Assembly (NCBI RefSeq): GCF_000024025.1
Contig: NC_013131.1
Coordinates: 4,464,001-4,528,000, forward strand
Direction: 5' to 3'
DNA from: Catenulispora acidiphila DSM 44928
Lineage (GTDB): Bacteria; Actinomycetota; Actinomycetes; Streptomycetales; Catenulisporaceae
Length of the DNA: 64,000 bases
The notes under the pieces were generated by a model, which had not been told where the DNA came from, made no database searches, and saw only the letters and a program-made list of their open reading frames with translations. Of the stretch, positions 9,389-50,649 are shown piece by piece. A program made the position numbers and the translations under genes. Each line of letters starts with the position of its first letter. The first letter of the stretch is position 1.

Positions 9389-9409
9389 CCGATTGCACAG
9401 GGAGAACCC

Positions 9410-11491
9410 ATGGAAACAACGACCTGGACACACGCGACCGTGACGCTCGGCGTGCACGGCCTGACCCCGGCCACCGCTGGCGCCATGTCGGCCGCACTAG
9501 AGTCAGCAATCGAGGACGGCGACATTGTCGGCTTCCACTTCCTGCGTAAGGACGGCGGGATGCGGCTGCGCGCGGCCGGTCCCAAGGCCGCCGACCGGTT
9601 GCCGTCCGTCCTGGACGGCTTGGCGGACCGTGGCTTGATCGCGGGGTGGATCTTCGGGATCTACGAGCCGGAGGTCGAGGCGTTCGGCGGCCCGGCCGGT
9701 ATGGACGCCGCCCACGACCTGTTCTGCGCCGACAGCCGTGCCGTACTGGCCCACCTCGCAGCGGTGCAGGCCGAAGGCCCGGGGGCTCGGGAGGCCGCTG
9801 TGCTGCTGCTGTCCACGCTGCTGCGCGGCGCGCAATTGGACTGGTACGAGATCGGTGACGTGTGGGCCAGGATCGCCGCCGAGCGACCGCCAGTCGACGC
9901 CGTGCCGGCAGGTGCCCAGCTGGCGCAGTCCTGCGCCGCGATGCTGGCCCTGATGCACGCCGACGCCGCGCACGTGAAGGTCGGGACCGGATGGGACACG
10001 CGGGTCCGGGCCTTCGCCGACGCCGGAGTCCGCGTGCGTGCTCTGGCCGACGACGGAACCCTTGGCCGCGGCCAAACGCCAGAGGTCGGGCTGCGAGCGG
10101 TCCTGGCCCACCACGCGATCTTCGCGCTCAACCGAGCCGGACTGACTAGTGCGCAGCAGGCCGAATTGGCGCTGCTGGCCAAGACGGTCGTGTTCTCGCC
10201 GCCGTCCGACGTGTCGCCCCCTGGTGCCGCTGCTCCCGCCGGTAGCGTCGTCCAGATGGAGTCCACCATCACCCCCACCGCCGCCGACCAAGCCTCCGAA
10301 CTGCGCGCCACCCTGGTCCAGAACCTCAAGGACGCGGACGTTCTGTCCGACCCGCGCATCGCCGACGCGTTCCTGGCCGTTGAGCGCCACAAGTTCCTGC
10401 CCGGCGTCGACCTCGCTACCGCGTATGCCGACGACGCTGTCACCGTCAAGACCGCTGACACGGGCATCGTCATCTCCGCCATTTCCCAGCCCACCATCGT
10501 GGCGACCATGCTCCGGCAGCTCGACCCGCAGCCCGGGGACCGCGTCTTGGAGGCGGGCGCGGCCACCGGCTACAACGCCGCGTTGATCGGAAACCTGGTC
10601 GGCCCCGACGGGTACGTGTGGACGATCGACGTCGACCAGGACCTCATCGACGGTGCGAACGCCCACCTGGCCGCAGCCGGGGTCGGCAACGTGACTGCGG
10701 TGCTGGGTGACGGTGGCGTGGGACTCCCCGAGCACGGTCCGTACGACCGGATCATCTTCACTGTCGGCGCGGGCGACGTGCCAGCCGTGATCCTGGACCA
10801 GCTCGCGCCCGGCGGACGCCTGGTTATCCCCGTGCGTATCCGGGGCGGGGTGTCCCGCGCGATCGCGCTTCAGCACAACGGCGACCAGTGGGTGTCGGTG
10901 TCCTCGGAGATGGCCACGTTCATGCCGCTGCGCAAGGGCATCGCCGACGACGAGCGCGTCATCACAGCCTTGAGCGATGACGGCGGCGTGACCCTACACA
11001 CCTACGCCGAGCAGAACGTGGACACCGCCGCGATTACCAAGGCGCTGGACTACCCGGGGTACGAGGTGTTCAGTGGCGTGAAGTTCCGCAAGGGGACGAC
11101 ATGGGAGTGGCTGAACCTGTGGCTGACGTGTGCCCTTCCCAGTGGCATCTCCCGCATGCCGGCATCCGGACCGGAGGTCGAGTCCGGGAAGATCCGTCCG
11201 CAGTTCCCGTGGGGCTCGATGGCCGCCGTCGAGGCTGACACCATCGCCTACCTGTCGATGCGTGAAGGCCAGGACGAGTCCGGCCGCTTCTGGGAGGCTG
11301 CGGTCATCGGCCACGGCCCGAACGCTGCGGCGCTGGCCGAGGCCACGGGCGAGCAGATCCGGGCCTGGAGCGAGGGACATCGCGACACCGTTCCCACGTT
11401 CCGCGTCGCCACCGGCCCCAGCCGGGAAACGCTCCACGGCCGGTTCACGGTCGCCAAGCCCGGAAGCCGGATCGCCCTGGACTGGGCCTGA
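9410..11491 (+). CDS. LanB elimination domain fused to an FxLD-system O-methyltransferase
   Basis: 693 residues. The first ~260 residues (IVGFHFLRKDGGMRLRAAG..., LDWYEIGDVWARI) match the thiopeptide-type/SpaB C-terminal elimination domain that removes glutamate from the modified precursor. From about residue 285 the protein is a protein-L-isoaspartate O-methyltransferase homologue: TIVATMLRQLDPQPGDRVLE then AGAATGYNAAL is the SAM-binding loop near residue 380. The last ~200 residues are an extension found in the 'methyltransferase, FxLD system' family. Related RiPP enzymes methylate an Asp in the cyclised peptide, leading to succinimide or isoaspartate; the two core aspartates of the precursor are the obvious candidates. 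GGGAGAA precedes the ATG. Confidence 0.88.
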   Translation: METTTWTHATVTLGVHGLTPATAGAMSAALESAIEDGDIVGFHFLRKDGGMRLRAAGPKAADRLPSVLDGLADRGLIAGWIFGIYEPEVEAFGGPAGMDAAHDLFCADSRAVLAHLAAVQAEGPGAREAAVLLLSTLLRGAQLDWYEIGDVWARIAAERPPVDAVPAGAQLAQSCAAMLALMHADAAHVKVGTGWDTRVRAFADAGVRVRALADDGTLGRGQTPEVGLRAVLAHHAIFALNRAGLTSAQQAELALLAKTVVFSPPSDVSPPGAAAPAGSVVQMESTITPTAADQASELRATLVQNLKDADVLSDPRIADAFLAVERHKFLPGVDLATAYADDAVTVKTADTGIVISAISQPTIVATMLRQLDPQPGDRVLEAGAATGYNAALIGNLVGPDGYVWTIDVDQDLIDGANAHLAAAGVGNVTAVLGDGGVGLPEHGPYDRIIFTVGAGDVPAVILDQLAPGGRLVIPVRIRGGVSRAIALQHNGDQWVSVSSEMATFMPLRKGIADDERVITALSDDGGVTLHTYAEQNVDTAAITKALDYPGYEVFSGVKFRKGTTWEWLNLWLTCALPSGISRMPASGPEVESGKIRPQFPWGSMAAVEADTIAYLSMREGQDESGRFWEAAVIGHGPNAAALAEATGEQIRAWSEGHRDTVPTFRVATGPSRETLHGRFTVAKPGSRIALDWA

Positions 11492-14815: not shown

Positions 14816-17083
14816 CTAGACGAGCTCGGCACCATTGGATAGGCCCTCGATAGGCAGTCCCAGCGCAGCGTGCAGTGATGAAGCCCAGCGCTCGAAGTCA
14901 GCGGCTTCATCCTGGCGCCCCAAGCTGCGGTATGCCTTCGCCGCGCCAGCGATGGCCCGGGCCTCGTTCACTCGGTCGCCGAGCGTGCGCTGGATCACTG
15001 CGGCACGCTGGTAGTAGGCCAGGGCCTCGTCGGCGCGGTCGACCGCCTGTAGGGATCTGGCGCGTGCGATGAACGCAGCGCCTTCAAAACCACGATTGTC
15101 CAGTTCGTCGGCGACTTCGATGGCCAGTGCCGCGTAGCGCTCAGCTTCGGAGGCATGCCCGGTGCTGAGCTGGGTGTTGCAGATGGAGATGAGAACGTGG
15201 AAGCGACCGACGGCGTCGCCGGCGTCTGTATGCAGCATGAGCGACTGTTGGAATGCTGCGAGCGCCTCGTCGGCGTCCCCGGTCGCGAGCCGGACACATC
15301 CGATTCCCTCGACGGGGTAGCCCAGGAAACTGTTTAGGTGCTCGGTCCGGCACAGGTCGATCGAGGCTTGGAACGTGTTCATGGCTGCTTCGAAATCACC
15401 CGCGTCATGCTGCAGGAACCCGATGAGGTCCAGAAGCCAGGCTTGTCCGTGGAGATCTTCGCGTTGCTCGTGGATCGCGAGGGCGGCGTTGTAGTACCCG
15501 GAGGCCTCATCGAGGCGGTGTGATTGACGGCACGCCATTCCTAGGGAGGCGAGCAGCGCGGCTTGACCGACGAGGTCGCCGCTGCGTTTGGCGGCGGCAA
15601 GGCCGGGACGGGTGATCACGAACCAGTCGTCGAAGTATCCGTTGTCGGCGTATACGAAGCTCAAGGCTGCAGGAAGCTGCCATGCATGGCGGTCGAGTCC
15701 GAGTCGCTCCGCCAGGCGCACCGCCTCGATCAGGTTCGCGCGTTCAGTACGGAACCAGGACAGGGCCGATGGATAGTCGGAGAACGACGGAGGTGCCACG
15801 GCGGAGTCGGGGGCGTCGACCGGCGCGTGATGCGCGGCCTGCTCATAGGGCGCCGAGGCACGGACGGCCTCGGCGCCCTGGACGTACCAGTCCAGCAAGC
15901 GGCCCAGGGCTTGGACATTCTCCTGGTCGGTGTCCGCCTCGTCTGCTTGGTCGGCGGCGTAGGCGTGCAGCAGGTCGTGGACCTGGAATCGGTCCCGGTC
16001 GAGCTGCGTGATCAGGTGTGCGGCAGCCAGATCGTCGAGCAATCGTGCGGCGGCGCGTGGTTGTACGCCGGCCAGCGCGGCCGCCGCACCGACGGCAAAC
16101 TCGGCGGTCGGGTGCAGGCCCAGCAGCCGGAACATCCGCGACGCCGGTTCCCGCAGTGCGCGGTAGGACCATGCGAACACCGTCCGCACCGCGTCCGCCT
16201 CCGCCGCGTCCTCGGAGGACAGGGCGTCCCACATCGAGGATTCGTTGCGCAGATCCGCGATGAGGTCGGTCAACGGCATCCGGGGCCGGGCAGCGGCGCG
16301 TTCGGCGGCGATCCGCAAGGCCAGAGGCAGCCTGGCGCACAAGCCGGCCAACTCCGCGACGTCCGCCTCGTCGTCGGCGCGCTGAGCGCCGATCGCGGTG
16401 GTCAGCAGCATGACCGCGTCGTGTTCGGCGAAGACGTCGGCGGTTATTCGGGCAGCACCCTCCCTGGCGATGAGAGCGGACAGCCGACTGCGCGACGTGA
16501 TGAGGGTGACGCAGCCCGCCGCACCGGGCAGCAAGGGTCTGACCTGCTCACTGTCGGCGGCATTGTCCAACACGATCAGCAGTCGCTTGTCCGCGACCAG
16601 CGATCGGAAAAGCGCGGCCCGTGCATCGGTGTCACTTGGAGTCATAGCCGCAGGAACCCCGAGCGCCTCGATGAAGTGGCCGAGGATATCTGCCGGTGCG
16701 GCCGGTGATCCTTGATCGAAGCCGTGTAGATTCGCGTGCAGCTGGCCGTCGGGGAAGCGATCGCGGTTTCGGTGTGCCCAGTGCAGCGCCAGCGAGGTCT
16801 TGCCTACGCCTGCCGTACCGGAAACGACCATAACAGGACCCTGAGTGCCTGCCACTCCTTCCTCGCTGCCGGCCTCGGGTGCCGGCGCCAACGCGTCGTC
16901 GAGTGCTTTGAGATCGGCCACCCGGTTCACGAAACCTCGCACGTCCCCCGGCAGCTGTCTCGGAGTTGGTGCCGGTGCTCGCGTCGCGGAGTGGAAGTGG
17001 ATGTCGCCGCTGATGTCCCGCGCCTGTATGACGTCGCGCGCCGAACCGCTCATCTCCGACTGCGTGTTGTCGTGACTGCTCAC
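14816..17083 (-). CDS. NLR-like STAND NTPase (NB-ARC plus TPR) with N-terminal amyloid-type motif
   Basis: 755 residues. The N-terminal 30 residues hold SGSARDVIQARDISGDIHFH, of the RHIM-like amyloid signalling type known from bacterial NLR proteins. The NTPase follows: P-loop GTAGVGKTS near residue 90, Walker B RLLIVLDNAADSEQ, a sensor-like LITSRSRL and the GLPL-type LCARLPLALRIAAE. The second half is a TPR array (DEASGYYNAALAIHEQ; ADEALAYYQRAAVIQRTLGD), the likely ligand sensor. By analogy, ligand binding causes oligomerisation and the N-terminal motifs template fibril formation in an effector. The effector at 17144, 60 bp upstream on the same strand, has a related motif. SARP-type regulators share the NB-ARC/TPR layout but this protein lacks their DNA-binding domain. 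Confidence 0.85.
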   Translation of the reverse strand: MSSHDNTQSEMSGSARDVIQARDISGDIHFHSATRAPAPTPRQLPGDVRGFVNRVADLKALDDALAPAPEAGSEEGVAGTQGPVMVVSGTAGVGKTSLALHWAHRNRDRFPDGQLHANLHGFDQGSPAAPADILGHFIEALGVPAAMTPSDTDARAALFRSLVADKRLLIVLDNAADSEQVRPLLPGAAGCVTLITSRSRLSALIAREGAARITADVFAEHDAVMLLTTAIGAQRADDEADVAELAGLCARLPLALRIAAERAAARPRMPLTDLIADLRNESSMWDALSSEDAAEADAVRTVFAWSYRALREPASRMFRLLGLHPTAEFAVGAAAALAGVQPRAAARLLDDLAAAHLITQLDRDRFQVHDLLHAYAADQADEADTDQENVQALGRLLDWYVQGAEAVRASAPYEQAAHHAPVDAPDSAVAPPSFSDYPSALSWFRTERANLIEAVRLAERLGLDRHAWQLPAALSFVYADNGYFDDWFVITRPGLAAAKRSGDLVGQAALLASLGMACRQSHRLDEASGYYNAALAIHEQREDLHGQAWLLDLIGFLQHDAGDFEAAMNTFQASIDLCRTEHLNSFLGYPVEGIGCVRLATGDADEALAAFQQSLMLHTDAGDAVGRFHVLISICNTQLSTGHASEAERYAALAIEVADELDNRGFEGAAFIARARSLQAVDRADEALAYYQRAAVIQRTLGDRVNEARAIAGAAKAYRSLGRQDEAADFERWASSLHAALGLPIEGLSNGAELV

Positions 17084-38554: not shown

Positions 38555-39083
38555 CCAGCGATGCGACTCCGCTCGCGTCCGACAGCCGGTGCCGGAGTAA
38601 CGAAACCCTCGACCGTGAGCCCTGCCGACGGCGCGCTCGATCTGTTCGGCGACAATCGGCCTTTTGATCTCAGCCTTCTTGCTGCCAATCCCGAGACTGG
38701 GCTCAAGCTCGCGGTCCGGGGCCGCTTCTCGAAGCTGATTCCGGCGTCCTCGATGAGCTCGCCGACGAGGGCGTTGAGACCAGTAGACATATCCCGGGAT
38801 ACGGCCGAGTTCTCCGCTCACGGGGTGATGGCGGGGCCGAACAGGTGAGACGCCGAATGGGCGATCGGCGCCAGGGGCCCGCTGTAGCCTGTCTGTCGCC
38901 ATACCTGCTGTGACGTGGGAAAACGGCATGCAGTCATGCCGGTCGATCGGCTTCCGGCAGATTTATTGCGATCCCATGCGTTCGGAGGTTTTCCGTCCAG
39001 GGGGTTGGGTTCGGTCGGGAGTTGGCAGGACGCCAAGCGGTGGTCCCAAGCCGAGGACCGGTGCCTTGAGAGGAAGCGCGTTC
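38555..39083. other. Intergenic region before the DUF262 gene
   Basis: About 530 bases. A minus frame (38539-38790; MSTGLNALVGELIEDAGISF) is open but has no recognised match. The promoter of the DUF262/helicase pair should lie near its right end. Confidence 0.4.
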
Positions 39084-40694
39084 GTGGCCGAGCAGTCGAC
39101 GTTCACTGTTGCCCAGTTGATCGATCAGGCGGAGCGGTTCGACGTCCCGGAGGTACAGCGCCTTTTCACCGCTCGACCCGAGTGGGTCGTCCTGCTCATT
39201 GACTCCCTTTACCGAGGGATCGGGGTTGGCGCGCCTCTCCTGTGGAGTCCGCGCGAGGGTGCCCCAGATTCCCGCTATCGGTGTGAATCGACAGCCGATT
39301 ATTGGATTATCGACGGGCAGGGGCGCCTTACTGGAACGCTGGCCGCCTTCGGGATCCGGCCGCCGTGGATCGCCGGCGAGCAGTGGGAAGCCATGGGTGG
39401 TCCGGAGCGCGAGGTGGCGGTGGCGTTCACCCCGCTCGGCCAAACTAATTTCGTACAGTACAAGCCTGGTGAGCGTTGCCAGATCCGGCTTCGCGATCTG
39501 CTTGATCCGGGGCCAGGGGGACTGTCAAAGCTGCTGCGTGAGACGACTGGGACTATGCCGGACGCTGTGATGATCGAGACGCTCGCCGTACTCGCTCAAC
39601 GGTTGCGCGATGCGGCGTTCCATGTGTACTGGCAGGACGGTGGTCTGCGCAATGTCGTCGACGCGTTCATCCGGCACAATCAGAGGGGCTCGGGGCGATT
39701 CCTGTCCCGTGAAGAGTGTGACCTGGCAGTTCTGGCCCTATCGTGCCCAGGGCTGCAACGGGACATCATCGACCCGGCTGTGGCTGATGTCGCCGCTGCC
39801 GGCTTCCCCCTGACTCTGGATCGGCGCCGCATCTTCGCAGTCATGAAGGTCCTGACGCCGGTGAAACTACGCATGTGCATGGCGGACAACCCCGATCGGC
39901 TGCGGGCTGTCGCATATACCGCCGTAGCCGGGGCCCGAGCTGTAGCCGAGTACCTATCGCGCTGCGGGATCGCGGGCGACGAACTGTTCGCCCGCCGTCC
40001 ACTGGCGTTGGTACTCGCGACGTTGTTCGCCCGCTTCCCGCAGTCTGCCTCACGCGACTTCGCCCGACGCTGGCTGGCCCAGGCGCTGGCCTCAGGACGA
40101 TACGACTTCGGAGGCAACCAGTTCGCCGACAGCGACGCCTCCGCGGTCGCCCGCTGTACGACTCTGGACGACGCCGAAACCGTCCTGGCGGCTCGGATCG
40201 CGCAATTCACTGAACCGCAGCTTGACCCGGAGGACCTGACCACCAGCCACTCCGCCGCCGGCAAGGCCTGGACACTTTACGCTCTGGCCTGCCACGCACA
40301 GACCTGCGGCCCGGTCAGCGATCTGGCCGATCCCACGATCGGCGCCGGCGACCCGGCACTGCAGTTGCACCCCTTGTGGCCACACACAGCCAGCAGGACT
40401 CGCCGCACCTTGGCCGCCTACGCGATGATGACCGAGGCCAGCGCGGAGCGCATCGCGGCGGTCGGAGGGTTCACCGTAGATGCCTACCTGGACCTTCGTT
40501 GCTCGGACCAATCACTACACGCCCAACAAATCTGTCGCCCCAGCTCCGATACCGACGTCGAGGAAGTGGTTCGTCACCGGACGGTCGCCCTCGTCGACAT
40601 GATCGGCGGCTTTCTAGCGCGACTTGAACCGCTGGCACCCCCACCCTTGGTCGGCGCGGACGTTGCACTGCCACGCGCGCTGGAAACCGCGTGA
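39084..40694 (+). CDS. DUF262-domain protein (first gene of a putative defence pair)
   Basis: 536 residues from GTG 39084, with GAGAGGAAG upstream; an in-frame ATG at 38910 would add non-conserved residues. FTVAQLIDQAERFDVPEVQR then EWVVLLIDSLYRGIGVGAPL and ADYWIIDGQGRLTGTLAAF (near residue 75) is the DUF262 (ParB/sulfiredoxin-like) domain of GmrSD-type restriction proteins; the usual IDGQQRL is IDGQGRL here. The remaining 400 residues are helical and carry no HNH (DUF1524) motif that I can see. DUF262 proteins use nucleotide hydrolysis to control DNA cleavage in defence. The stop overlaps the start of the helicase gene, so the two are coupled. Confidence 0.8.
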   Translation: MAEQSTFTVAQLIDQAERFDVPEVQRLFTARPEWVVLLIDSLYRGIGVGAPLLWSPREGAPDSRYRCESTADYWIIDGQGRLTGTLAAFGIRPPWIAGEQWEAMGGPEREVAVAFTPLGQTNFVQYKPGERCQIRLRDLLDPGPGGLSKLLRETTGTMPDAVMIETLAVLAQRLRDAAFHVYWQDGGLRNVVDAFIRHNQRGSGRFLSREECDLAVLALSCPGLQRDIIDPAVADVAAAGFPLTLDRRRIFAVMKVLTPVKLRMCMADNPDRLRAVAYTAVAGARAVAEYLSRCGIAGDELFARRPLALVLATLFARFPQSASRDFARRWLAQALASGRYDFGGNQFADSDASAVARCTTLDDAETVLAARIAQFTEPQLDPEDLTTSHSAAGKAWTLYALACHAQTCGPVSDLADPTIGAGDPALQLHPLWPHTASRTRRTLAAYAMMTEASAERIAAVGGFTVDAYLDLRCSDQSLHAQQICRPSSDTDVEEVVRHRTVALVDMIGGFLARLEPLAPPPLVGADVALPRALETA

Positions 40695-43600
40695 GCCATA
40701 CCCATACTCCGAAGCCGCCAGCGGTTGTCACCAACGGCGACGGAGCCTCCGTCCTTACCGCGGCGGGGAACTGGCTGTCCGATATGGCTCCTGGATCGCA
40801 AGGCTCAGTCGTATCACTGGCCGCCGGATACCTGAGCATCCACGGCCTGATGCTACTGACCGGCCGGCTGAGGGCTCTGCTGGACAATGGGGCAACGCTT
40901 CGGCTGCTGTTCGGTGTCGCCCCGACCGGCACGGCAGCCGTCACCGTCGATGCTGGGGACAAGGACATCGCCGACCTGCCCGAGCTGCTGGCCGCGGACG
41001 AAGGCGCGCTGCGCGCCGAGATCGCAGGGATCCCGATGTCAGCGGCCAACGCCAGCCGCCTGGCTGACTTGCTCAGCGTGCTGTCCCACAAGGATGTCGA
41101 GATCCGACGATTTGAGCGTGGCTTCTTTCACGCCAAGGCTATTGTCGCGGACTATCCAGTTGGCGCGGTTGCCCTAGTCGGTTCCTTCAACCTGACTCGT
41201 GGCGGCATGCTCAGCAACATCGAACTCGGTGTCGGTGTCGCTCGTTCCCAGGGCCGGGCGGTGGCCGAACAGGTCCACGGCTGGTGGAACCAATCCGAGC
41301 CCTACGACCTCAACGAACTCATCTCCACTCTGTTTCTGCTGGCTCCCATCGAACTCGTGTATCTACGGATCCTCTCCGCGCTGTTCGCCGAGGAACTCGC
41401 GGTGTGTGCCTCGCCGATCGGGCTTACCGGTTTCCAGGAGGCAGCGGTTGCCAAAGCGCTGCTCACACTTCGCCACCGTGGCGGCGTGCTGCTGGCTGAC
41501 GACGTCGGCCTTGGCAAGAGCTATATCATCGCCGACCTCGCCCGTCGTGAAACGATCGCCGAAGTAGGCACTGCCCGGATCGCGCTATTCTGCCCCGCGC
41601 ACCTGAAACCCATGTGGCTGGCCTACAAGAACCGTTGGAATCTGCATGTTGACATCCACAGCTACAACGCTCTGTCTGATATGTACAAGAAGGTCCGCCG
41701 TGGCGGCGGAGTCTGGCATCAATATTCGATGATCATCTGCGACGAGTCGCACTACTTGAACAATCGCGACCGCAAGCGTTACAAAGCACTGGTAGACCTC
41801 CTTGCGGCCAAGGGCAGACGCCCAAAGATCATCCTGGCCACTGCCACGCCAGCCAACAACAGTGGCGAAGATTTGGCAACGCAACTCAACCTCGCCTGCC
41901 CGTTCCCAGAGACCGGACGTCCCCGCGCCCATGGCTGGTCGCCGTGGCCGACCGTGCGCATGTCCAGAACTCGGCTGTTCGACCTGTGCCGCCATGCGAC
42001 CAAGCTGCCGAAGCCCGTCTTGAGGGACCTCCACGCTGAGATCGATGCCCTCACCGTGCGGCGCACTCGCCCGTTCATCAAGGCGACATGGGCCAGTCCC
42101 GCCAAAAGCCTGCAATTCCCTGTCGTGCGGCAGCACGCCCTCTACTACCAACTCGGCGACCAGATGCGCGACCTGTTCGCCGACGTGCTGGACGCAGCAA
42201 CCATCGGGCCGGCGGCCAAGGACGATCAGTTCCGAGCCGCCATGCGAGACCTGCGCGGACCGACCGCGCGGGTCAGGCCACTGACGCTGGCGGCGTTCAT
42301 GCCCCAGTGCTACGCACTCGACGAGGCGCCGCCATTGTGGACCGATCTCCTGCCGGCCCTGATGAAGATCGCCCTTCTGAAACGGATCGAATCTTCCACC
42401 GCGGCCTTCGCTGTCACCGCCGCTGTCCTGGCTCAACGTACCCAGGAAGCAATCGACGAGCTCGATCGGCGTGACCGCGTCCGCATTACCATTGGCCGCG
42501 AACGCCGCGATCGTTTGCAGGACCTCATGGCTGCGCTGCTCGACCAAGGCGCGGACCGGGAGCGCATCGACGCCATCTTCACAAACCTGCTAGATGGGGA
42601 CAGCAAGCTCGGACCGGCAGGCGGCATCCCGCACTCGATGTACCGTGCCGCGCACCGATTCGACCGCGAACGCTTGTCGCAGGACCTGCAGGCCGACCGG
42701 GACACGCTCGAACAGTTCGCTGCACGCGCCGCCGCTGCGACGGCCGCTGGCGATCCCAAGGCCGACGCGTACACCACGTTGCTGGACGCCATCGCTGGTA
42801 AGACGCTCACCTTCGCTGCGGCCCGGGCCACGACCGCCGACCTGGGATTGCGTATCGATGCCCACCTCGGCGCCGGCGGCGCGCCGCACTACGCTGGACG
42901 TTTCGCCACTATCGGTACGAAAGACCCGCCGACCAAAGCAACAGTTGCACGGATCCTGGCTGGCTACTGTCCCAAAACCGCCTCCGCAACGGAGGCCCTT
43001 GGGACTCGCCGCTCCCGTGACGAGTACGACTTATTGCTGGCCGGCGACGGAATCTCCGAAGGCGTCAACCTCCAGCAAACCCGCGTCATCATCAACTACG
43101 ACCTGCCCTGGGCCCCCGGTCGACTCGCCCAGCGCATCGGACGTGCCGATCGCATTGGCTCACCCCACAAGGTCATCGACGTCTACACCGTTCTGCCAGA
43201 CCAGGTGCTGGACGCTTACCTGCGGCTAATGGACACCCTTGCCGCTAAGGCCGAAACTGCCGCCGTCCTGGTCGGCTCCACCACCGCACTGTTCCCCGGA
43301 GCTGCCATTCGGCCGCTGAACTTCACTGCCATGTACGAAGATCTCGTCAAGCCCGACAGCGAGCCCGTCATCGATGTACCGCCGTCAGAAACGCGCCGAG
43401 CAGTTGCGCGGCGCGCGCACGATGAACCGACGGTCGCTCGCCGGTTGGCCGAAGCGACCACATGGGCCGGAGCAATTCACCCTGAACCTGCCGATGACCC
43501 AGTCGCAGTCTTCTGTTTTGAGCTGCACGGCGTCGAAGGTCAGGCCGCGGTGCCGGTCCTGTGCCTGGTTGGAGCCGGACGCCGCCTCGGCTTCATCACT

Positions 43601-43873
43601 ACCGACCCCGAAGTGTGCTTGGCCGAGATCGAGGTTGATCCCACAGACTGGATGGAGCAGGTCGCAGCCGGCACGCATACCGACCTGCGAGTGCCGACCC
43701 CACCTGCTGCCCACCAGCTCATTTTCGAGCTGTGTGCACGGGCCAAGTCAGACCTGGCGTCCACCTATGGAATCGACCACGATCACCTCGACGAACGTCT
43801 CCGGCTCGTCGGCTGGATCCTGCGCCCCGACAAGAACATGGCACGGGCCGCCCGTGACAAGTGCTGCTACTGA
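40691..43873 (+). CDS. PLD-domain/SNF2-type helicase fusion (second gene of a putative defence pair)
   Basis: 1060 residues. An N-terminal phospholipase-D-like nuclease domain has one HKD motif: FHAKAIVADYPVGAVALVGS then FNLTRGG near residues 145-170 (H-x-K-x4-D...GS-x-N). A SNF2-family helicase follows: motif I LADDVGLGKS near 270, motif II ICDESHYLNN near 349, motif III LATATPANN, a long insertion of about 250 residues, then motif V GDGISEGVNLQQTRVIINYD and motif VI QRIGRADRIG near 790-820. The single HKD suggests dimerisation for cleavage. GTG 40691 overlaps the upstream stop by 4 bp. Translocation coupled to DNA cleavage, licensed by the DUF262 partner, is my inference. Confidence 0.85.
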   Translation: MSHTHTPKPPAVVTNGDGASVLTAAGNWLSDMAPGSQGSVVSLAAGYLSIHGLMLLTGRLRALLDNGATLRLLFGVAPTGTAAVTVDAGDKDIADLPELLAADEGALRAEIAGIPMSAANASRLADLLSVLSHKDVEIRRFERGFFHAKAIVADYPVGAVALVGSFNLTRGGMLSNIELGVGVARSQGRAVAEQVHGWWNQSEPYDLNELISTLFLLAPIELVYLRILSALFAEELAVCASPIGLTGFQEAAVAKALLTLRHRGGVLLADDVGLGKSYIIADLARRETIAEVGTARIALFCPAHLKPMWLAYKNRWNLHVDIHSYNALSDMYKKVRRGGGVWHQYSMIICDESHYLNNRDRKRYKALVDLLAAKGRRPKIILATATPANNSGEDLATQLNLACPFPETGRPRAHGWSPWPTVRMSRTRLFDLCRHATKLPKPVLRDLHAEIDALTVRRTRPFIKATWASPAKSLQFPVVRQHALYYQLGDQMRDLFADVLDAATIGPAAKDDQFRAAMRDLRGPTARVRPLTLAAFMPQCYALDEAPPLWTDLLPALMKIALLKRIESSTAAFAVTAAVLAQRTQEAIDELDRRDRVRITIGRERRDRLQDLMAALLDQGADRERIDAIFTNLLDGDSKLGPAGGIPHSMYRAAHRFDRERLSQDLQADRDTLEQFAARAAAATAAGDPKADAYTTLLDAIAGKTLTFAAARATTADLGLRIDAHLGAGGAPHYAGRFATIGTKDPPTKATVARILAGYCPKTASATEALGTRRSRDEYDLLLAGDGISEGVNLQQTRVIINYDLPWAPGRLAQRIGRADRIGSPHKVIDVYTVLPDQVLDAYLRLMDTLAAKAETAAVLVGSTTALFPGAAIRPLNFTAMYEDLVKPDSEPVIDVPPSETRRAVARRAHDEPTVARRLAEATTWAGAIHPEPADDPVAVFCFELHGVEGQAAVPVLCLVGAGRRLGFITTDPEVCLAEIEVDPTDWMEQVAAGTHTDLRVPTPPAAHQLIFELCARAKSDLASTYGIDHDHLDERLRLVGWILRPDKNMARAARDKCCY

Positions 43874-44690: not shown

Positions 44691-44747
44691 ACTGTCACGT
44701 AGCGAGCCTGGCTGGCATTGCCACGGGTCATTTAGATCCTCGGGTTT

Positions 44748-46445
44748 TCACCGGATGGTGATGGGGATCTGGACGGTTGTCTCGTCCACGTCGTCGGTGC
44801 GCAGGGTGACGGCTAGGCGCCAGGTGCCGGCGAGGGGGAGGGAGGCGTTGCCGATCAGGTGGCCGGCTCCGGCGGTGCGCAGCGTCATCGGCAGCGGGCC
44901 CAGGGCGTGGGAGGCGAGGGTGAAGGATGCCTGGACCTGGAGGACCTGTTGCTGCTTGCCGGTCGGGCCGAGGGTGTAGAGGTGGACCGTGTCGGAGCCG
45001 GTCTTGGCCGGGTCGACGGTGACCTGGACGGTGCCGCTGCCGCCGGGACCGCCGGTGTCGAACGCGGCGGAGGCGCTGGCCGGTCCGGCGGAGGCTGCGT
45101 GGGCGGTGCGCGCGGGTGGGGCGTTGACCAGGGCGGCGGTCAGTGCGAGGACACAGACTCCCACGCCGACCTCGCCGGCGACGGAACGGCGCAGGCGGGA
45201 GATCGCGGCGCGGTCGGTGGTCCCGGTGTTTCGGTCCTCGCGGTGTCGGGCGATCCAGGTGCGCGCCAGGTAGCCCAAGCCGATCAGGATGGCCACGCCG
45301 AGCAGCTTGAGCAGCAGCAGCCTTCCGTACGCGGTGCCGGTGAGCGCGGGCACGGAGCCCACCTGCCGCCAGCTTTGGTACGTGCCGGTGCCGACGAGCA
45401 CGATCACGCACCACAGCGCCACCGGCGAGAACCGGCGCACCATCCGTGCCCGCTCGCTCGGCGTTTCGCGGCCGCTGCGGCGTAGGACGATCGTGGCCAG
45501 GATCGTCAGCCCGCCGAGCCAGACGGCCATCGCGCACAGGTGCGTGACGTCGACCGGCACGGCGAGCGCCACCTGGATCCCGGTGCTGGCATGTCCGGAC
45601 ACGGCCCAGGTCGCAGCGATGCCCACGGTCAGCAGCGCACCGGCGACCGCGACCAGAATCCGGGCTCGTCGCGAAGCGTCGGGCAGGCGGGTGAGGAGCC
45701 AGGCGAGCAAAGCAGCGGTGAGCGCCAGCAGAATCAGTCGTATCGACAGCGCTGCACCGAGGCGCGTCGACAAGGTGGTGCGCAGCACACCGGTGTCCAG
45801 CGCGCGGTTGATGTCGAAGCCCGCACCATAAGGGCCCTGCAACACCAGCACACCGGCGGTGGCCACAGCGAGGCTGCCCCACGCCGACGCCACCAGGATC
45901 CGCACCGCTCTGGTGCGTGCGCCGTTCGGCCACCACGCGAACAGGAACACCGCCGCGCCGACCAGGACGGCGAACGCGGCGTAGGCGACGAAGCGCGCGA
46001 CCCCGTAGAGCGCGCCGACCGTCTTGCTGCCCGAGGTGCTCAGCGTTGTGGAGTTCACTGTCGAGGCGGAGGCTTGGCCGACGCTGAACGTGAACGCTCC
46101 CTGCACGGGATGGGAGTCGTCGGAGATGACGCGCCAGGACACCGTGTACGTGCCCTGTTTCAGTCCGCTCGCCAGATCGACGGCGACCTCGTCGGCGTGG
46201 CCGGTGGGGTGGGCTGGGCTGCCCTCGTCCACTCGCGCGCCGCTGGGGTCGAACACCCGCAGGGCACCGAACTGGAGGGACACCGGCTCGTCGAAGGTCA
46301 CCGACGCCTGACGCGGCGCCGAGGCGACGGTCTGCCCGTCGCCGGGGGAGGTCGCGACCACCGTGGCGTGCGCGAAGGCGCCCTGCGCGGTGAGCAGGAT
46401 CAGACAGATGACCAGGGCCGGAATCGCCAGCAGCCGACGGAGCAC
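44748..46445 (-). CDS. CopC/CopD-type copper resistance protein
   Basis: About 565 residues. A signal peptide (VLRRLLAIPALVICLILLTA) is cleaved before HATVVATSPGDGQTVASAP, so the mature protein begins with the CopC copper-binding His; the CopC beta-barrel runs to about residue 125. Then come about eight membrane helices of CopD (GVARFVAYAAFAVLVGAAVF; LCAMAVWLGGLTILATIVL) and a C-terminal extracellular domain of FixH/YtkA type (VTVDPAKTGSDTVHLYTLGP). GTG 46445 has GAGG 7 bases upstream; GTG 46454 is an alternative. It likely handles copper import or delivery, with YcnI 10 bp upstream. Confidence 0.88.
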   Translation of the reverse strand: MLRRLLAIPALVICLILLTAQGAFAHATVVATSPGDGQTVASAPRQASVTFDEPVSLQFGALRVFDPSGARVDEGSPAHPTGHADEVAVDLASGLKQGTYTVSWRVISDDSHPVQGAFTFSVGQASASTVNSTTLSTSGSKTVGALYGVARFVAYAAFAVLVGAAVFLFAWWPNGARTRAVRILVASAWGSLAVATAGVLVLQGPYGAGFDINRALDTGVLRTTLSTRLGAALSIRLILLALTAALLAWLLTRLPDASRRARILVAVAGALLTVGIAATWAVSGHASTGIQVALAVPVDVTHLCAMAVWLGGLTILATIVLRRSGRETPSERARMVRRFSPVALWCVIVLVGTGTYQSWRQVGSVPALTGTAYGRLLLLKLLGVAILIGLGYLARTWIARHREDRNTGTTDRAAISRLRRSVAGEVGVGVCVLALTAALVNAPPARTAHAASAGPASASAAFDTGGPGGSGTVQVTVDPAKTGSDTVHLYTLGPTGKQQQVLQVQASFTLASHALGPLPMTLRTAGAGHLIGNASLPLAGTWRLAVTLRTDDVDETTVQIPITIR

Positions 46446-46455
46446 AGCGGACACC

Positions 46456-47268
46456 TCAACCCGGAGGAGTGGACGTGGGGGCGGATGTGGAGGTGGCGCC
46501 TGAAGTGGAGTCGGAGCTCTTGCGGCGCGCCCTCGACACGCCGAACGCGCCCACCGCCAGCCCGGCGACGCCGACCACGATGCCTGCGGTCCCCAGCGTC
46601 CGTGCGGTTGTGTCACTGCTCGCTGAGTTCGGTGTTACCGGGGCGGCGGTGACCGACGGTGTGCTGGCCGCAGTGTCCGCGGTGTCCGAGGTTTGCGAGC
46701 CGGAACCGGGCGCGGTCAGCACCAGGACCGGAGCCGGATGCTCCGGCGCGGGCTGACTGGGCTGCGCCAGATCGATCCAGCGCACCACGTCGCCGTTGGA
46801 GTACGTCTGAACAGCCTTGAAGACCAACTGGTTCGTGTCGTCGGGCAGCTTGCCCAGCATCACCCGGAAGCCCTGGTACTGCCCCGGCGCCGTTGCCCCG
46901 CCGGTCCAGGTGAGCTTCGAGACGGCCTGGCTGACGGTGCCGTCGTCGGCGGTGACGGGTTTGGGCAGCGTGGAGTTCGTCACCGCGACCGTCCAGCCGG
47001 GAGTGGATTCGGGCAGCACGCCGGTGACGGGGTGGTCGGTGGGGAAGACGACTTCGACCTTCGTGGTGGTCGCCGTGGCCTCCTCGTCGGGGACCCGGAA
47101 GGTCAGCTCCACATCGCGGCCGCCCTTGGCGGTCGCGTCGGGCCCGATGGTGACGTGTGCCGAAGCCGCGCCGGCGGAGCCGAGAATGGACAACGCTGTG
47201 CCGGCTAGGACCGCTGCCAGCGGTTTCCTGGCTCTGACAGCGCGTGAGGATCGTTGATGACCTGACAT
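46456..47268 (-). CDS. YcnI-family copper-binding protein (DUF1775)
   Basis: 270 residues. Signal peptide (PLAAVLAGTALSILGSAGAA) followed by SAHVTIGPDATAKGGRDVEL; the first mature His is the YcnI copper ligand, with Trp (PGWTVAV, DVVRWIDL) as further ligands. A low-complexity Ser/Thr/Ala linker leads to a C-terminal membrane anchor (GIVVGVAGLAVGAFGVSRAR). AAGGAG precedes ATG 47268. YcnI with a CopCD (YcnJ) protein downstream is the standard arrangement for copper acquisition. Confidence 0.9.
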   Translation of the reverse strand: MSGHQRSSRAVRARKPLAAVLAGTALSILGSAGAASAHVTIGPDATAKGGRDVELTFRVPDEEATATTTKVEVVFPTDHPVTGVLPESTPGWTVAVTNSTLPKPVTADDGTVSQAVSKLTWTGGATAPGQYQGFRVMLGKLPDDTNQLVFKAVQTYSNGDVVRWIDLAQPSQPAPEHPAPVLVLTAPGSGSQTSDTADTAASTPSVTAAPVTPNSASSDTTARTLGTAGIVVGVAGLAVGAFGVSRARRKSSDSTSGATSTSAPTSTPPG

Positions 47269-47334
47269 CAGGCTTCTCCTTTCCATGCTCCAATCCGATC
47301 CGGCACGCAGTCGCCAGGCAGGGTGTCGGCCGCG

Positions 47335-47754
47335 TCAGCCGGCGGTCGGAGCTTTGGCGCCGATCCGGTGTGGTCGGATGATGAGCGGCGTCAGCGTGGC
47401 CACGGCGGCGGCCTGGCTGATCAGGGCCCAGACTTTGTCGGCGTACCAGATCGGCTCGTACATGTCGGGGAGCGGGCCGATGGCGCCGGGGTTCGCGTAG
47501 CGGTACAGCAGGATCGCCGCCAGGCCCGCGGCCGCGGTCAGCCAGGCGAAGGCGTCGCCGGGGCGGCGTCGCCACAGCACCACCAGTACAGCAGCGGCGA
47601 TCGCGGCGGCTGCCTCGATGCGGAACAGTGTGCCCTGGCTGATGACGGAGGAGGTGACCGGGTCGTAGCGGTGCGCCAGATTCAGGTGGATCCCGGCGTC
47701 GACGGCCAGGCCGGCGGCGGCGACCGCACGCAGGACGATGGGCAGGAACGGCAT
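47335..47754 (-). CDS. Small four-helix membrane protein
   Basis: 139 residues, four membrane helices (IVLRAVAAAGLAVDAGIHL; IEAAAAIAAAVLVVLW; AFAWLTAAAGLAAILLYRY; ALISQAAAVATLTPLII). It is part of the leftward copper/envelope gene row, between the cupredoxin and YcnI genes. Proteins like it occur with YcnI/cupredoxin genes in actinomycetes; the function is not known. Confidence 0.8.
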   Translation of the reverse strand: MPFLPIVLRAVAAAGLAVDAGIHLNLAHRYDPVTSSVISQGTLFRIEAAAAIAAAVLVVLWRRRPGDAFAWLTAAAGLAAILLYRYANPGAIGPLPDMYEPIWYADKVWALISQAAAVATLTPLIIRPHRIGAKAPTAG

Positions 47755-47764
47755 CAGAGCCTCC

Positions 47765-48214
47765 CTATCCGACTGTCAGCGTGCCGTGCATCGATGCATG
47801 GATGCTGCAGACGTATGGATATGTGCCTGCGGTGGCCGGAGCCGTGATCGTCGCGGACTTGCCGGGGTTGATGGCTCCGGTGTCGAAGGCGCCGCCGGAG
47901 CCGGCTGTCAGGGTGTGGGTCGTGGAGTCGTGGTTGACGACCGTGATGCTCTGTCCGGGATGCACGGTGAGGTTCGCCGGGCTGAACGCGAAGTTGTCGA
48001 TGACGATCTGCGCGGCCGTTGTCGGTGCTTGACTCGGGGCTGTGGTCGTCGAGGGCGCGGACGGCGAGGCCGGGCCCGTCGTCGAGGGCGTGGTGGGGGA
48101 GCTCGGCGGTGTCGTGGGTTGCGAGTTGCCGGTGGACGCGGTTGAGGAGCAGCCCGCAGCAGCGAGAAGCAGTGCCGCGGCCGGGATCGCGACGCGTCGC
48201 AGGGTTCTGAGCAT
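47765..48214 (-). CDS. Cupredoxin-domain lipoprotein (plastocyanin-like)
   Basis: 149 residues. A lipoprotein signal (AIPAALLLAAAGCSS-like lipobox AAGC) is followed by a Pro/Ser/Thr linker and a cupredoxin domain. Type-1 copper ligands are visible: His in HDSTTHTL, then Cys, His and Met in YPYVCSIHASMHGTL. It should sit outside the membrane and carry copper or electrons. GAAGGGAAG precedes the start. A paralogue is at 54096. Confidence 0.92.
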   Translation of the reverse strand: MLRTLRRVAIPAAALLLAAAGCSSTASTGNSQPTTPPSSPTTPSTTGPASPSAPSTTTAPSQAPTTAAQIVIDNFAFSPANLTVHPGQSITVVNHDSTTHTLTAGSGGAFDTGAINPGKSATITAPATAGTYPYVCSIHASMHGTLTVG

Positions 48215-48226
48215 GGCACTTCCCTT

Positions 48227-48826
48227 CTACTTGCCGGTCCAGCAGCCCAGGATGTCGGTGGTGACCTCGTAGGCGACGTCGGCGCGGCTGAGTTTGCTCG
48301 GGCCGGATGCCGCCGCCAGTCCGGTGGCATCGACGTGCAGGGTCTTGTCGTCCTTCAGGACCACGACGTTGCCCGCGGCGTTCTGGAATCCGGGGTTGCC
48401 CAGGCCTTCGCTGCCGGTGAGCGGGGTCGTGGAGCCCAGCTGGCGCTGGAGTGTCGCGAGGTAGGTGTTCGCGGACGCGGTGTCCGGGGACTCCTTCACC
48501 GACAGCACGAGCGTGCCGGAGGCGAGGTGGTAGGTGCAGGTGTAGAGGTGATCGGTCCAGGTGGTGGTCGTCGTCGGAGCCGGCGAGGCGGCGAGGATCG
48601 TCTCCACGGCGCCCTGGATCTCCGTCCCGCAGACCATCAGCGCGGATGCCGACGGACCGGCCGCGGACGAGCCGGCGGTGGGAGCCGTTGTGGCTCCGGC
48701 CGCTGCCGACGGGCTGGACGACGTGCTCGGAGCAGAGGCGCCTGGAGCCGCTGTTTTCGCCGACGCGCAGCCGGCCGCCATCGCCGCCGTCACGGATACG
48801 GCTGCGAGCAGTCGCAGTGCCCTCAT
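48227..48826 (-). CDS. Putative lipoprotein
   Basis: 199 residues. Lipoprotein signal peptide (LLAAVSVTAAMAAGCASAK), Ser/Ala/Thr-rich linker, then a globular domain with three cysteines (MVCGTEIQGAVETILAA; HLYTCTYHLASGTLVLSVKE; TTDILGCWTGK). No family is recognised. It lies between the sortase and cupredoxin genes, all on the same strand with short gaps, so it is probably exported with them. Confidence 0.75.
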   Translation of the reverse strand: MRALRLLAAVSVTAAMAAGCASAKTAAPGASAPSTSSSPSAAAGATTAPTAGSSAAGPSASALMVCGTEIQGAVETILAASPAPTTTTTWTDHLYTCTYHLASGTLVLSVKESPDTASANTYLATLQRQLGSTTPLTGSEGLGNPGFQNAAGNVVVLKDDKTLHVDATGLAAASGPSKLSRADVAYEVTTDILGCWTGK

Positions 48827-48849
48827 GATGTCTTCCCGCCCTTTCTCGG

Positions 48850-49593
48850 CTAGGCCGGGTGGATCGCGGTCAAGCTGGCGTAGACGACGATGTCGTCCAG
48901 GTAGTGCTGGTTCTGGAACGGTCCGGCGCAGGTGATCAGCCGCAGCTGCGGGTTGGTGGTGTTGCCGTAGACGGTCGCGGTGGGGAAGGCGCTCTTGGCG
49001 TACTTGTTGATGCCGTCGATCCGGAACACGGCCACGGTGTCGTCGCTGCGGCTGACGTCGACGGTGTCACCGGGACGCAGCGCGCCCAGGTTGTAGAAGA
49101 CGCCCTTGGCGCCGGTCGTGCCGTCGATGTGTCCGACGATGACTGACGGTCCCACCTGGCCCGGTGCGGGGGAGTAGCGGTACCAGCCCGGAATCGAGGG
49201 GTCGGTCAGCGGCGGTGTCTGGATGGTGCCGTCGGAGTTCTGGCCGAGTTGGATCAGGGTGTGGTGCACGCCGATCTCCGGGATGCTGATCGCGGTGGGT
49301 GCGGCGGTTGGAGTGGCTGGAGCGGCTGGCTTCGTCGGTGCTGCGGGCGTTGCGGGCGTTGCGGCGGGCGAAGGCGAGGCCGGCGCTGGTGAAGTGCTCG
49401 GCGTCGTTCCGGCGCTCGCCGCGTTCGGCACTCCCGCAGCCGGCAGCGCGGCCGAAGCCGGAGGCTGCGGCGGGTGGTGCTGCGCCGCGAACCCGAGCGC
49501 CAGCCCTCCCGCCGAAGCCAGCAGCAGGACGGCGGCCGCCGACGCCAGCAGACGCCGGCGGCCACTTCCGAACAGCCTTGTCAGCCAGGACAT
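48850..49593 (-). CDS. Class F sortase
   Basis: 247 residues. One N-terminal membrane anchor (LLASAAAVLLLASAGGLALG), a Pro/Ala linker and a sortase domain with the catalytic His (VIVGHIDGTTGAKGVFYNLG), Cys (PQLRLITCAGPF) and a downstream Arg-free tail; the usual catalytic Arg of sortases follows the Cys in most families and I cannot place it with confidence here (R in LRLITC precedes it). Class F enzymes are typical of actinomycetes. The adjacent CHRD protein has a C-terminal membrane anchor and could be its substrate, although no LPxTG motif is seen. Confidence 0.85.
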   Translation of the reverse strand: MSWLTRLFGSGRRRLLASAAAVLLLASAGGLALGFAAQHHPPQPPASAALPAAGVPNAASAGTTPSTSPAPASPSPAATPATPAAPTKPAAPATPTAAPTAISIPEIGVHHTLIQLGQNSDGTIQTPPLTDPSIPGWYRYSPAPGQVGPSVIVGHIDGTTGAKGVFYNLGALRPGDTVDVSRSDDTVAVFRIDGINKYAKSAFPTATVYGNTTNPQLRLITCAGPFQNQHYLDDIVVYASLTAIHPA

Positions 49594-49602
49594 GACCGCT
49601 GC

Positions 49603-50403
49603 CTACTTCTGGTCGGCGTTCCGGCGCCGCAGGTACAGCGCGCCACCAGCGGTGGCCGCCAGGCCGGCGCTCGCGGCGAACATCCACGGCTGCTGCAGAC
49701 CGGAGGTCCCGCCGCCGCCGGTGTTCACCCCGCCGCCGGGCACCGCAGCCATCTGCGACACCTGCAGCGGACCGCACAGCGCCGGCGAGGTCGCGGCCAG
49801 CGGCAGCGAGGGCACCAGATCACTGGGCTCGGCCTGCGCCTGGGCGCTCAGCGTCGTCGGGTCCAGACCGTGGACCACGATCACGGCCTTGCCGGACTCG
49901 ATCGAGGACACGGTCGCCGAGTCCAGGGTGATGGTGCGCGAGTAGTCGAACGACCCGCCGGACGGAGCGATCTTGACGTCGGTGCCGGCCGCCGGACTGG
50001 TGTCGCCGCTGACGGACAGGGTGGTGCCGATGCCGCCGTAGAACGGCGCGCCCTCGGTCGTGCTGATCACGCCGTCGCCGTTCTTGTCGGCGGAGGTGCC
50101 GCTCGGGCAGGCGCCCGCCGCGCCGATGTGGATGTGCTGGACGTGCGGGTACGCCGCGCCCATGAAGGTGGTGGCCAGCCCGTGCACGTTCTCGGTGATG
50201 ACGGCCTTGTCGCCGGTCAACTGGAGCATCAGCGACCCGGAGCCGCCGGCGTGGTTCAACGGGTTCAGCGTCGCCATGTAGGTGGCGCTGCCGGACGACT
50301 GCGCGCTCGCGGTCGACGCGGTGAAAGCCAGCGGGAACGCCAGCAGGGCCGCGGGGGCAGCGGCCAGCGCCATGATCCTGGTCGTTCTTTTGGCATGCGT
50401 CAT
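49603..50403 (-). CDS. Secreted CHRD-domain protein with C-terminal membrane anchor
   Basis: 266 residues. Signal peptide (MALAAAPAALLAFPLAFTAS) then a CHRD-like domain (ATYMATLNPLNHAGGSGSLM; VHGLATTFMGAAYPHVQHIH) with two His clusters. The C-terminus is Gly-rich (VPGGGVNTGGGGTSGLQQPW) followed by a membrane helix and RRRNADQK, like a cell-wall sorting tail but without LPxTG. GGAGGAG precedes the start. It is the first gene of the leftward envelope/copper row, 247 bp from the RskA gene. Confidence 0.82.
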   Translation of the reverse strand: MTHAKRTTRIMALAAAPAALLAFPLAFTASTASAQSSGSATYMATLNPLNHAGGSGSLMLQLTGDKAVITENVHGLATTFMGAAYPHVQHIHIGAAGACPSGTSADKNGDGVISTTEGAPFYGGIGTTLSVSGDTSPAAGTDVKIAPSGGSFDYSRTITLDSATVSSIESGKAVIVVHGLDPTTLSAQAQAEPSDLVPSLPLAATSPALCGPLQVSQMAAVPGGGVNTGGGGTSGLQQPWMFAASAGLAATAGGALYLRRRNADQK

Positions 50404-50649
50404 CGTGCTCTCCTCCAGCTAGTGGTGCTGATGACGTCTCTGACCTGTGAACAGGTGCTGCCCTGCTCAACCCAGGGACATAAGGAAGACATGCGCCGAA
50501 GCTTTACGGCGGCTCGAATCGACCTTCTCCAGGGATTCGGAGACAGTGCGCCGACGGATTGGTCGAAGTTTGAATGCGAGGAGAAAACATTCTTTGAGGC
50601 GCTTGCGCCATGCCCGACGATGCGCCGATCGCGCTGGTGGCCACGCTTT
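50404..50649. other. Promoter region between RskA and CHRD genes
   Basis: About 245 bases without a gene. It should contain the promoter of the leftward row from 50403 to 44748; a match to a sigma-K-type promoter was not established by eye. Confidence 0.45.

What the first reader, a model, noticed from the sequence alone, without database searches (positions are those of the whole stretch)
39084..43873. DUF262 plus PLD-SNF2 helicase: candidate unnamed two-gene defence system
A DUF262 protein (IDGQGRL variant, no visible HNH nuclease) overlaps by 4 bp with a 1060-residue protein joining a one-HKD phospholipase-D nuclease to a full SNF2 helicase. The nuclease missing from the first protein may be supplied by the PLD domain of the second. 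I cannot match this pair to a named system; DISARM and Mokosh use PLD and helicase parts but with different helicases or separate genes and no DUF262 partner. It lies amid gene remnants and IS elements, as defence islands do.
Basis: partly seen in the sequence, partly recalled or inferred. Interest (0 to 1): 0.82.

Follow-up and report, generated by a model that had tools for sequence, protein, structure and literature searches.

The report
Split GmrSD/PLD-SNF2 two-gene defence module
A rare two-gene unit of soil actinobacteria pairs a DNA-modification-sensor protein whose own DNA-cutting domain has lost its active site with a DNA motor carrying a different DNA-cutting domain; it is most likely an unnamed anti-virus system in which sensing and cutting are done by separate proteins.

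Summary
A 536-aa DUF262 protein (39084-40694) overlaps by 4 bp a 1060-aa PLD-SNF2 protein (40691-43873). All six full-length DUF262 homologues found (27-44% identical to the window's) have the same helicase as the next gene on the same strand, and the two gene trees have the same topology. In four of the five other genomes Qat, DISARM plus GmrSD, Wadjet or a NACHT gene lies nearby; the window itself is not a tight island.

Gene 1 is a full-length GmrSD/BrxU homologue whose DUF1524 region has lost all three His-Me finger catalytic residues in all six members, while the DUF262 motifs are mostly kept. The helicase is a divergent clade of a PLD-SNF2 family whose other members nearly always carry an Eco57I-type methyltransferase (75/80 loci); the paired clade has none in its operon (0/6).

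Best reading: a nuclease-dead GmrSD sensor drives a PLD-SNF2 translocase/nuclease in trans, like a split SauUSI, against modified DNA. One member (Actinoplanes) has lost the PLD HxK motif, so the cutting step is inferred. No model in PADLOC-DB, NCBIfam or Pfam covers the pair, and no paper found describes it. New variant of a known kind.

The parts
39070..39076 (+). Shine-Dalgarno-like GAGGAAG, 7 nt before the GTG start of gene 1
   Evidence: read directly from the sequence
39084..40694 (+). gene 1: GmrSD/BrxU-like DUF262 protein, 536 aa, nuclease-dead
   Evidence: Pfam GmrSD_N, BrxU profile match, end-to-end hhalign with DUF262-DUF1524 proteins
39312..39326 (+). DGQGR, the DUF262 NTPase motif (DGQQR in relatives)
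   Evidence: alignment of six members
39666..39680 (+). FxxxN motif of DUF262 (FIRHN)
40221..40643 (+). pseudo-DUF1524 (His-Me finger) region with all three catalytic residues lost
40691..40694 (+). 4-bp stop/start overlap GTGA coupling the two genes
   Evidence: same 4-bp overlap in L109 and L059
40691..43873 (+). gene 2: PLD-SNF2 protein, 1060 aa
   Evidence: Pfam, AlphaFold2 model pLDDT 81, RapA-like motor
40691..41305 (+). N-terminal PLD nuclease domain, one HxK site
   Evidence: Pfam PLDc_2 residues 79-186; model
41129..41152 (+). HAKAIVAD, the HKD motif
   Evidence: kept in 5 of 6 pairs and 46 of 47 family rows, lost in L059
41408..43285 (+). SNF2 motor (Walker A VGLGK, DESH, motifs V and VI)
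   Evidence: Pfam SNF2-rel_dom and Helicase_C; motifs conserved in 6/6
43373..43870 (+). C-terminal alpha+beta domain, unassigned
   Evidence: confident part of the model after residue 895; no Pfam hit

Best explanation
The pair is a two-protein, methyltransferase-free, modification-dependent (type IV-like) restriction system. Protein 1 keeps the DUF262 sensor/NTPase module and the overall length of GmrSD/BrxU but has lost its nuclease site; it recognises invading DNA, most likely through a modified base, and switches state by NTP binding or hydrolysis. It then recruits or licenses protein 2, an ATP-driven SNF2 translocase with an N-terminal PLD nuclease, which moves along the DNA and cuts it as a dimer, much as SauUSI does with its sensor built in. 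Shown here: homology, catalytic-residue states, conserved pairing and co-inheritance, absence of a linked methyltransferase, defence-island context. Inferred: the defence role itself, recognition of modified DNA, physical contact of the two proteins, translocation and cleavage.
For: Same order and strand in 6/6 homologues down to 27% identity, with translational overlap or near-overlap in five; identical tree topologies of the two genes and one clade each; purifying selection on both. Gene 1 is BrxU/GmrSD-like with DUF262 motifs mostly kept and the DUF1524 His, Asn, Asn lost in 6/6. Gene 2 keeps ATPase motifs in 6/6 and HxK in 5/6. Methyltransferase found at 75/80 relatives' loci but in no pair operon. 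Qat, DISARM plus GmrSD, Wadjet or NACHT near four of five other copies. Precedents: SauUSI couples a reader, an SF2 motor and a dimeric PLD nuclease (PMC7913695); Menshen pairs a DUF262 protein with a separate nuclease (PMC10952713).
Against: The Actinoplanes member has lost HxK while its motor motifs are intact, so PLD cutting cannot be essential there unless that copy is decaying or uses another nuclease. No test of contact between the two proteins or of any activity was possible. The ligand (a modified base) is inferred from the DUF262 family only. The window copy itself is not in a defence island.
Confidence: 0.58

Rival explanations
1. Defence module in which the SNF2 motor, not the PLD nuclease, is the working part: it engages replicating or damaged phage DNA, and DUF262 is an NTP-dependent regulator; any cutting is done by other nucleases, including those of neighbouring systems.
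For: Motor motifs are kept in 6/6 but HxK in 5/6; the copy without HxK sits about 430 bp from a complete QatABCD with its own nuclease QatD.
Against: HxK is kept in 46 of 47 rows of the wider family and 5 of 6 pairs, and the PLD part evolves under purifying selection (dN/dS 0.26 between L110 and L147).
Confidence: 0.2
2. The pair is a cut-down restriction-modification system that relies on a host or neighbouring methyltransferase for self-protection and attacks unmodified DNA, with DUF262 as a reader of self marks.
For: Its closest helicase relatives are linked to an Eco57I-type methyltransferase at 75 of 80 loci; one pair lies beside a DISARM locus with DrmMI.
Against: No methyltransferase match near the other five pairs. 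DUF262 proteins studied so far read modifications on invading DNA or phosphorothioate marks (PMC10952713; PMC11411939).
Confidence: 0.12
3. Not defence: a DNA repair or housekeeping pair.
For: The window copy sits between ordinary genes; SNF2 motors also act in transcription and repair (RapA is the best sequence match).
Against: Patchy distribution (below about 0.5% of genomes searched), absence from nine other genomes of the genus, and named defence systems beside three of five other copies plus a NACHT gene beside a fourth.
Confidence: 0.08

Closest known systems
GmrSD family type IV restriction enzymes (Eco94GmrSD, BrxU, SspE; two-gene TgvAB and GrwAB)
   Same: DUF262 module with its motifs, helical middle and C-terminal DUF1524 region, full-length homology to gene 1
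   Different: gene 1 has no catalytic residues in DUF1524 in any of six members, and its partner is a PLD-SNF2 motor; in TgvAB and GrwAB one partner still holds an active DUF1524 (PMC11411939; PMC12137116)
SauUSI
   Same: N-terminal PLD nuclease with one HxK site plus an SF2 motor, modification-dependent; a Foldseek match to gene 2 (7clg)
   Different: single chain with its own SRA reader; here the motor is SNF2 type and the presumed reader is a separate DUF262 protein
Type-2 BREX-related (BR) systems: DUF499, N6-methyltransferase, DUF3780, HKD-SNF2 helicase (PMC12839542)
   Same: HKD nuclease fused N-terminally to an SNF2 helicase as the proposed effector
   Different: those carry a methyltransferase, DUF499 and DUF3780; none of these was seen beside the pair, and DUF262 replaces them
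Eco57I-type methyltransferase plus PLD-SNF2 loci (L002-L081)
   Same: nearest relatives of gene 2, about 30% identity, same domain order
   Different: paired with a methyltransferase instead of DUF262; the DUF262-paired helicases are one separate clade on a long branch
Menshen
   Same: DUF262 protein without a DUF1524 nuclease, working with a separate nuclease gene (PMC10952713)
   Different: partner is an OLD-family nuclease, not a PLD-SNF2 motor
DISARM
   Same: DrmD is an SNF2 helicase and DrmC a PLD nuclease; shared motor motifs
   Different: parts on separate genes, other partners, no DUF262; a full DISARM occurs beside one pair as a separate system

Membership tests
GmrSD type IV restriction enzymes | DUF262 with QR, DGQQR and FxxxN motifs | tested here: met
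   6/6 keep DGQ(Q/G)R or NGQQR; QR and FxxxN in 5/6 each, L157 departs in both
GmrSD type IV restriction enzymes | active DUF1524 His-Me finger (H...N...N/H) | tested here: not met
   all three residues lost in 6/6
GmrSD type IV restriction enzymes | cleavage of DNA with modified bases | not testable with these tools
   needs biochemistry
SauUSI-type PLD helicase type IV enzymes | PLD nuclease plus SF2 motor in one chain | tested here: met
   Pfam, model, Foldseek 7clg
SauUSI-type PLD helicase type IV enzymes | SRA-type target recognition domain in the same chain | tested here: inconclusive
   no Pfam domain in the C-terminal region; a confident alpha+beta domain of unknown kind is there
Type-2 BREX-related systems | HKD nuclease N-terminal to an SNF2 helicase | tested here: met
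Type-2 BREX-related systems | linked N6-methyltransferase, DUF499 and DUF3780 | tested here: not met
   no methyltransferase match beside any pair (queries from the Eco57I-type family only); immediate neighbours of the window pair are CrcB/PAP2/copper genes
DISARM | drmA, drmB, drmC plus a methyltransferase and drmD in one locus | tested here: not met
   absent around the window pair; gene 2 scores at most 82.5 bits with DrmD models against 1060 for a true DrmD in L149
Menshen | OLD-family nuclease partner | tested here: not met
   partner is PLD-SNF2 in 6/6
Any named system in PADLOC-DB 2.0.0 or NCBIfam 20.0 | full-length match above cut-off | tested here: not met
   current DefenseFinder models were not available

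The most novel reading that the evidence does not exclude
A new type of two-component type IV restriction in which a nuclease-dead GmrSD acts purely as reader and NTP switch and commands a separate translocating PLD-SNF2 nuclease, with no self-modifying enzyme: sensing and cutting divided between two proteins whose relatives are built differently.
Probability: 0.5. Interest if true: 0.75.

Novelty: new variant of a known kind. Interest (0 to 1): 0.62.

Why it matters
It extends to SNF2 motors a theme known from Menshen: DUF262 sensors that work through a separate effector rather than an attached nuclease. Because reader and cutter are on two genes, the role of DUF262 NTP hydrolysis (switch or fuel) could be tested apart from the motor's own ATPase. 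It also gives annotation pipelines a two-gene rule that the models tested here miss, and names a candidate restriction barrier in actinomycetes.

Tried and rejected
Plasmid records with the DUF262 protein: no match. Viral contigs with protein and profile: none. Plasmid hits for the helicase are distant, at most 73% of the query covered. Hypothesis that the pair's DUF262 descends from the GmrSD genes found next to methyltransferase/PLD-SNF2 loci: not supported, those lie in other branches of the DUF262 tree. The sister group of the pair's DUF262 clade (support 93/91) includes several DUF262 proteins without an HHxFP motif, one beside an OLD-type ATPase-like gene, but no SNF2 gene was seen in their 1.5-kb flanks. 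A longer start at 38910 for gene 1 was rejected on ribosome-binding-site and homology grounds. Structure prediction of protein 1 with five rows was too poor (pLDDT 54.5) for detailed fold claims. Paper searches gave no description of a DUF262 plus PLD-SNF2 pair.

Full report
OBSERVATION. The window lies in a single-contig genome of 10,467,782 bases; that size matches Catenulispora acidiphila from memory, which is a lead, not a test. Gene 1 (39084-40694, GTG start with GAGGAAG 7 nt before it) and gene 2 (40691-43873, GTG) are intact and share the four bases GTGA. Pfam finds GmrSD_N (DUF262) in gene 1, slightly under cut-off, and PLDc_2, SNF2-rel_dom and Helicase_C in gene 2.

CONSERVED PAIR. 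Searching overlapping samples of genomes, about 1,770 genome searches in all, plus one scan with gene 2, I found five more full-length gene 1 homologues: L109 (same family as the window's genome), L110 and L147 (the genus of most of that order, taken to be Streptomyces), L059/L148 (Actinoplanes rectilineatus) and L157 (another family of the class). Every one has the gene 2 homologue as the next gene on the same strand. The genes overlap by 4 bp in the window, L109 and L059, are 1 nt apart in L110 and L147, and about 100 nt apart in L157. Identity to the window's proteins is 27-44% for gene 1 and 32-43% for gene 2, so chance synteny is not an explanation. Separate trees of the two genes have the same topology (one split of the gene 1 tree is weak, 46%). 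Both genes are under purifying selection between L110 and L147 (dN/dS 0.21 and 0.24). Prevalence is low (below about 0.5%); the large profile searches scored only the best few first-look candidates per genome, so this is a lower bound. Nine other genomes of the genus lack it.

GENE 1. A profile of the family aligns end to end with DUF262-DUF1524 proteins (hhalign 99.7%, E 1.3e-26, 492 columns), matches BrxU by sequence (E 5.4e-11, residues 9-308), and its rough model matches BrxU and nothing else (E 3.3e-5, TM 0.31). The DUF262 motifs are mostly kept (QR 5/6, DGQ(Q/G)R or NGQQR 6/6, FxxxN 5/6). The C-terminal region is a DUF1524 remnant: its profile score against active relatives is 25.0, against 13.4 (sd 2.3, maximum 20.4) for column-shuffled versions, 0 of 200 reaching it, and the model shows strand, strand, helix there (427-430, 446-449, 451-459). 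Where active relatives read LQVHHIFP...ANFCFLTQDTN, the six members have no catalytic His and have lost both Asn. Mutating the corresponding His or Asn abolishes activity in TgvB (PMC11411939). So the nuclease is missing in function, not in outline. The C-terminal match on its own is weak (hhalign probability 4.7%, P 0.008); it rests on the full-length alignment and the shuffle test.

GENE 2. The model is good (pLDDT 81, pTM 0.80). Residues about 1-205 form a PLD domain with one HxK site and GSxN, 240-865 an SNF2 motor closest to RapA and chromatin remodellers, and about 895-1060 an unassigned alpha+beta domain. SauUSI, a type IV enzyme with PLD and SF2 domains, is among the Foldseek matches (7clg, E 3.5e-12). 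HxK is present in 46 of 47 family rows and in 5 of 6 pairs; the acid of HKD varies; in SauUSI it is Glu (PMC7913695). The Actinoplanes copy lacks HxK while keeping Walker A, DEAH and motifs V and VI.

RELATIVES OF GENE 2. The 80 best relatives elsewhere (about 30% identity, many phyla; L059 is one of them) nearly all have an Eco57I-type methyltransferase (PADLOC REase_MTase_IIG, 853 bits for L030), as a rule directly upstream: 75 of 80 loci score with those methyltransferases, against 0 of 6 pair neighbourhoods; the only match near a pair is DrmMI of the DISARM locus beside L109. The paired helicases are one clade on a long branch, so their exact place in the family is unsure. Five methyltransferase loci also carry a DUF262/GmrSD gene after the helicase (L002, L006, L013, L046, L158). 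The three checked have intact HHxFP motifs, and the four placed lie elsewhere in the DUF262 tree, so PLD-SNF2 helicases have met GmrSD proteins more than once.

CONTEXT. A full QatABCD ends about 430 bp upstream of the Actinoplanes pair. GmrSD and a complete class 1 DISARM lie beside the L109 pair. A complete Wadjet JetABCD lies about 5.6 kb from the L147 pair (L153). A divergent NACHT gene is next to L110. No system was recognised by eye beside L157, whose neighbours were not scanned. The window copy lies between CrcB/PAP2 genes and a copper operon; transposases are at 24.2-25.6 and 32.8-33.8 kb and an NB-ARC-TPR gene at 14.8-17.1 kb. Third-position GC of the pair is 0.73-0.75 against mostly 0.8-0.9 around it, which fits acquisition by transfer. 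No random-locus control for island enrichment was run.

MECHANISM. DUF262 in GmrSD, BrxU and SspE senses modified DNA and uses NTP to control the attached nuclease (PMC10952713; PMC11411939). SauUSI shows that a reader, a motor and a dimeric PLD nuclease make such an enzyme (PMC7913695), and Menshen shows a DUF262 protein with a separate nuclease (PMC10952713). Shown: homology, residue states, pairing, context. Inferred: everything biochemical. The Actinoplanes copy is the main point against cleavage by this pair alone.

KNOWN OR NEW. No PADLOC-DB 2.0.0 or NCBIfam model matches either gene over its length above cut-off, and no paper found describes the pair. Type-2 BREX-related systems (PMC12839542) and the methyltransferase/PLD-SNF2 loci share the HKD-SNF2 order but include a methyltransferase; GmrSD enzymes have an active DUF1524. 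The pair probably works like a type IV system but fails a defining feature of each known family, so I file it as a new variant of a known kind.

Noticed in passing
L002-L081: A widespread two-gene arrangement of an Eco57I-type methyltransferase (about 1350 aa) followed by a PLD-SNF2 helicase (about 1130 aa), in many phyla, sometimes with an active GmrSD gene after it. PADLOC calls the methyltransferase IIG-like; the helicase has no full-length model.
   Followed up: partly
window 44744-50421: The copper-resistance segment starting 870 bp downstream of the pair has a 98-99% identical second copy in the same genome near 3.98 Mb; its boundary at 44744 looks like a recombination junction.
   Followed up: partly
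L099, L102, L108, L126, L135, L138, L140, L118: DUF262 proteins of about 550-580 aa without the DUF1524 HHxFP motif, sister to the pair's DUF262 clade; L118 lies beside an OLD-type ATPase-like gene (Menshen-like). Loss of the DUF1524 site may be common in this part of the family.
   Followed up: partly
L159 near 8958-9654: A broken DUF262 gene (G1552) related to gene 1, matching in two pieces, with no SNF2 gene within about 9 kb.
   Followed up: no
window 14816-17083 (-): NB-ARC plus TPR protein with a small upstream gene, of the STAND conflict-system kind.
   Followed up: no
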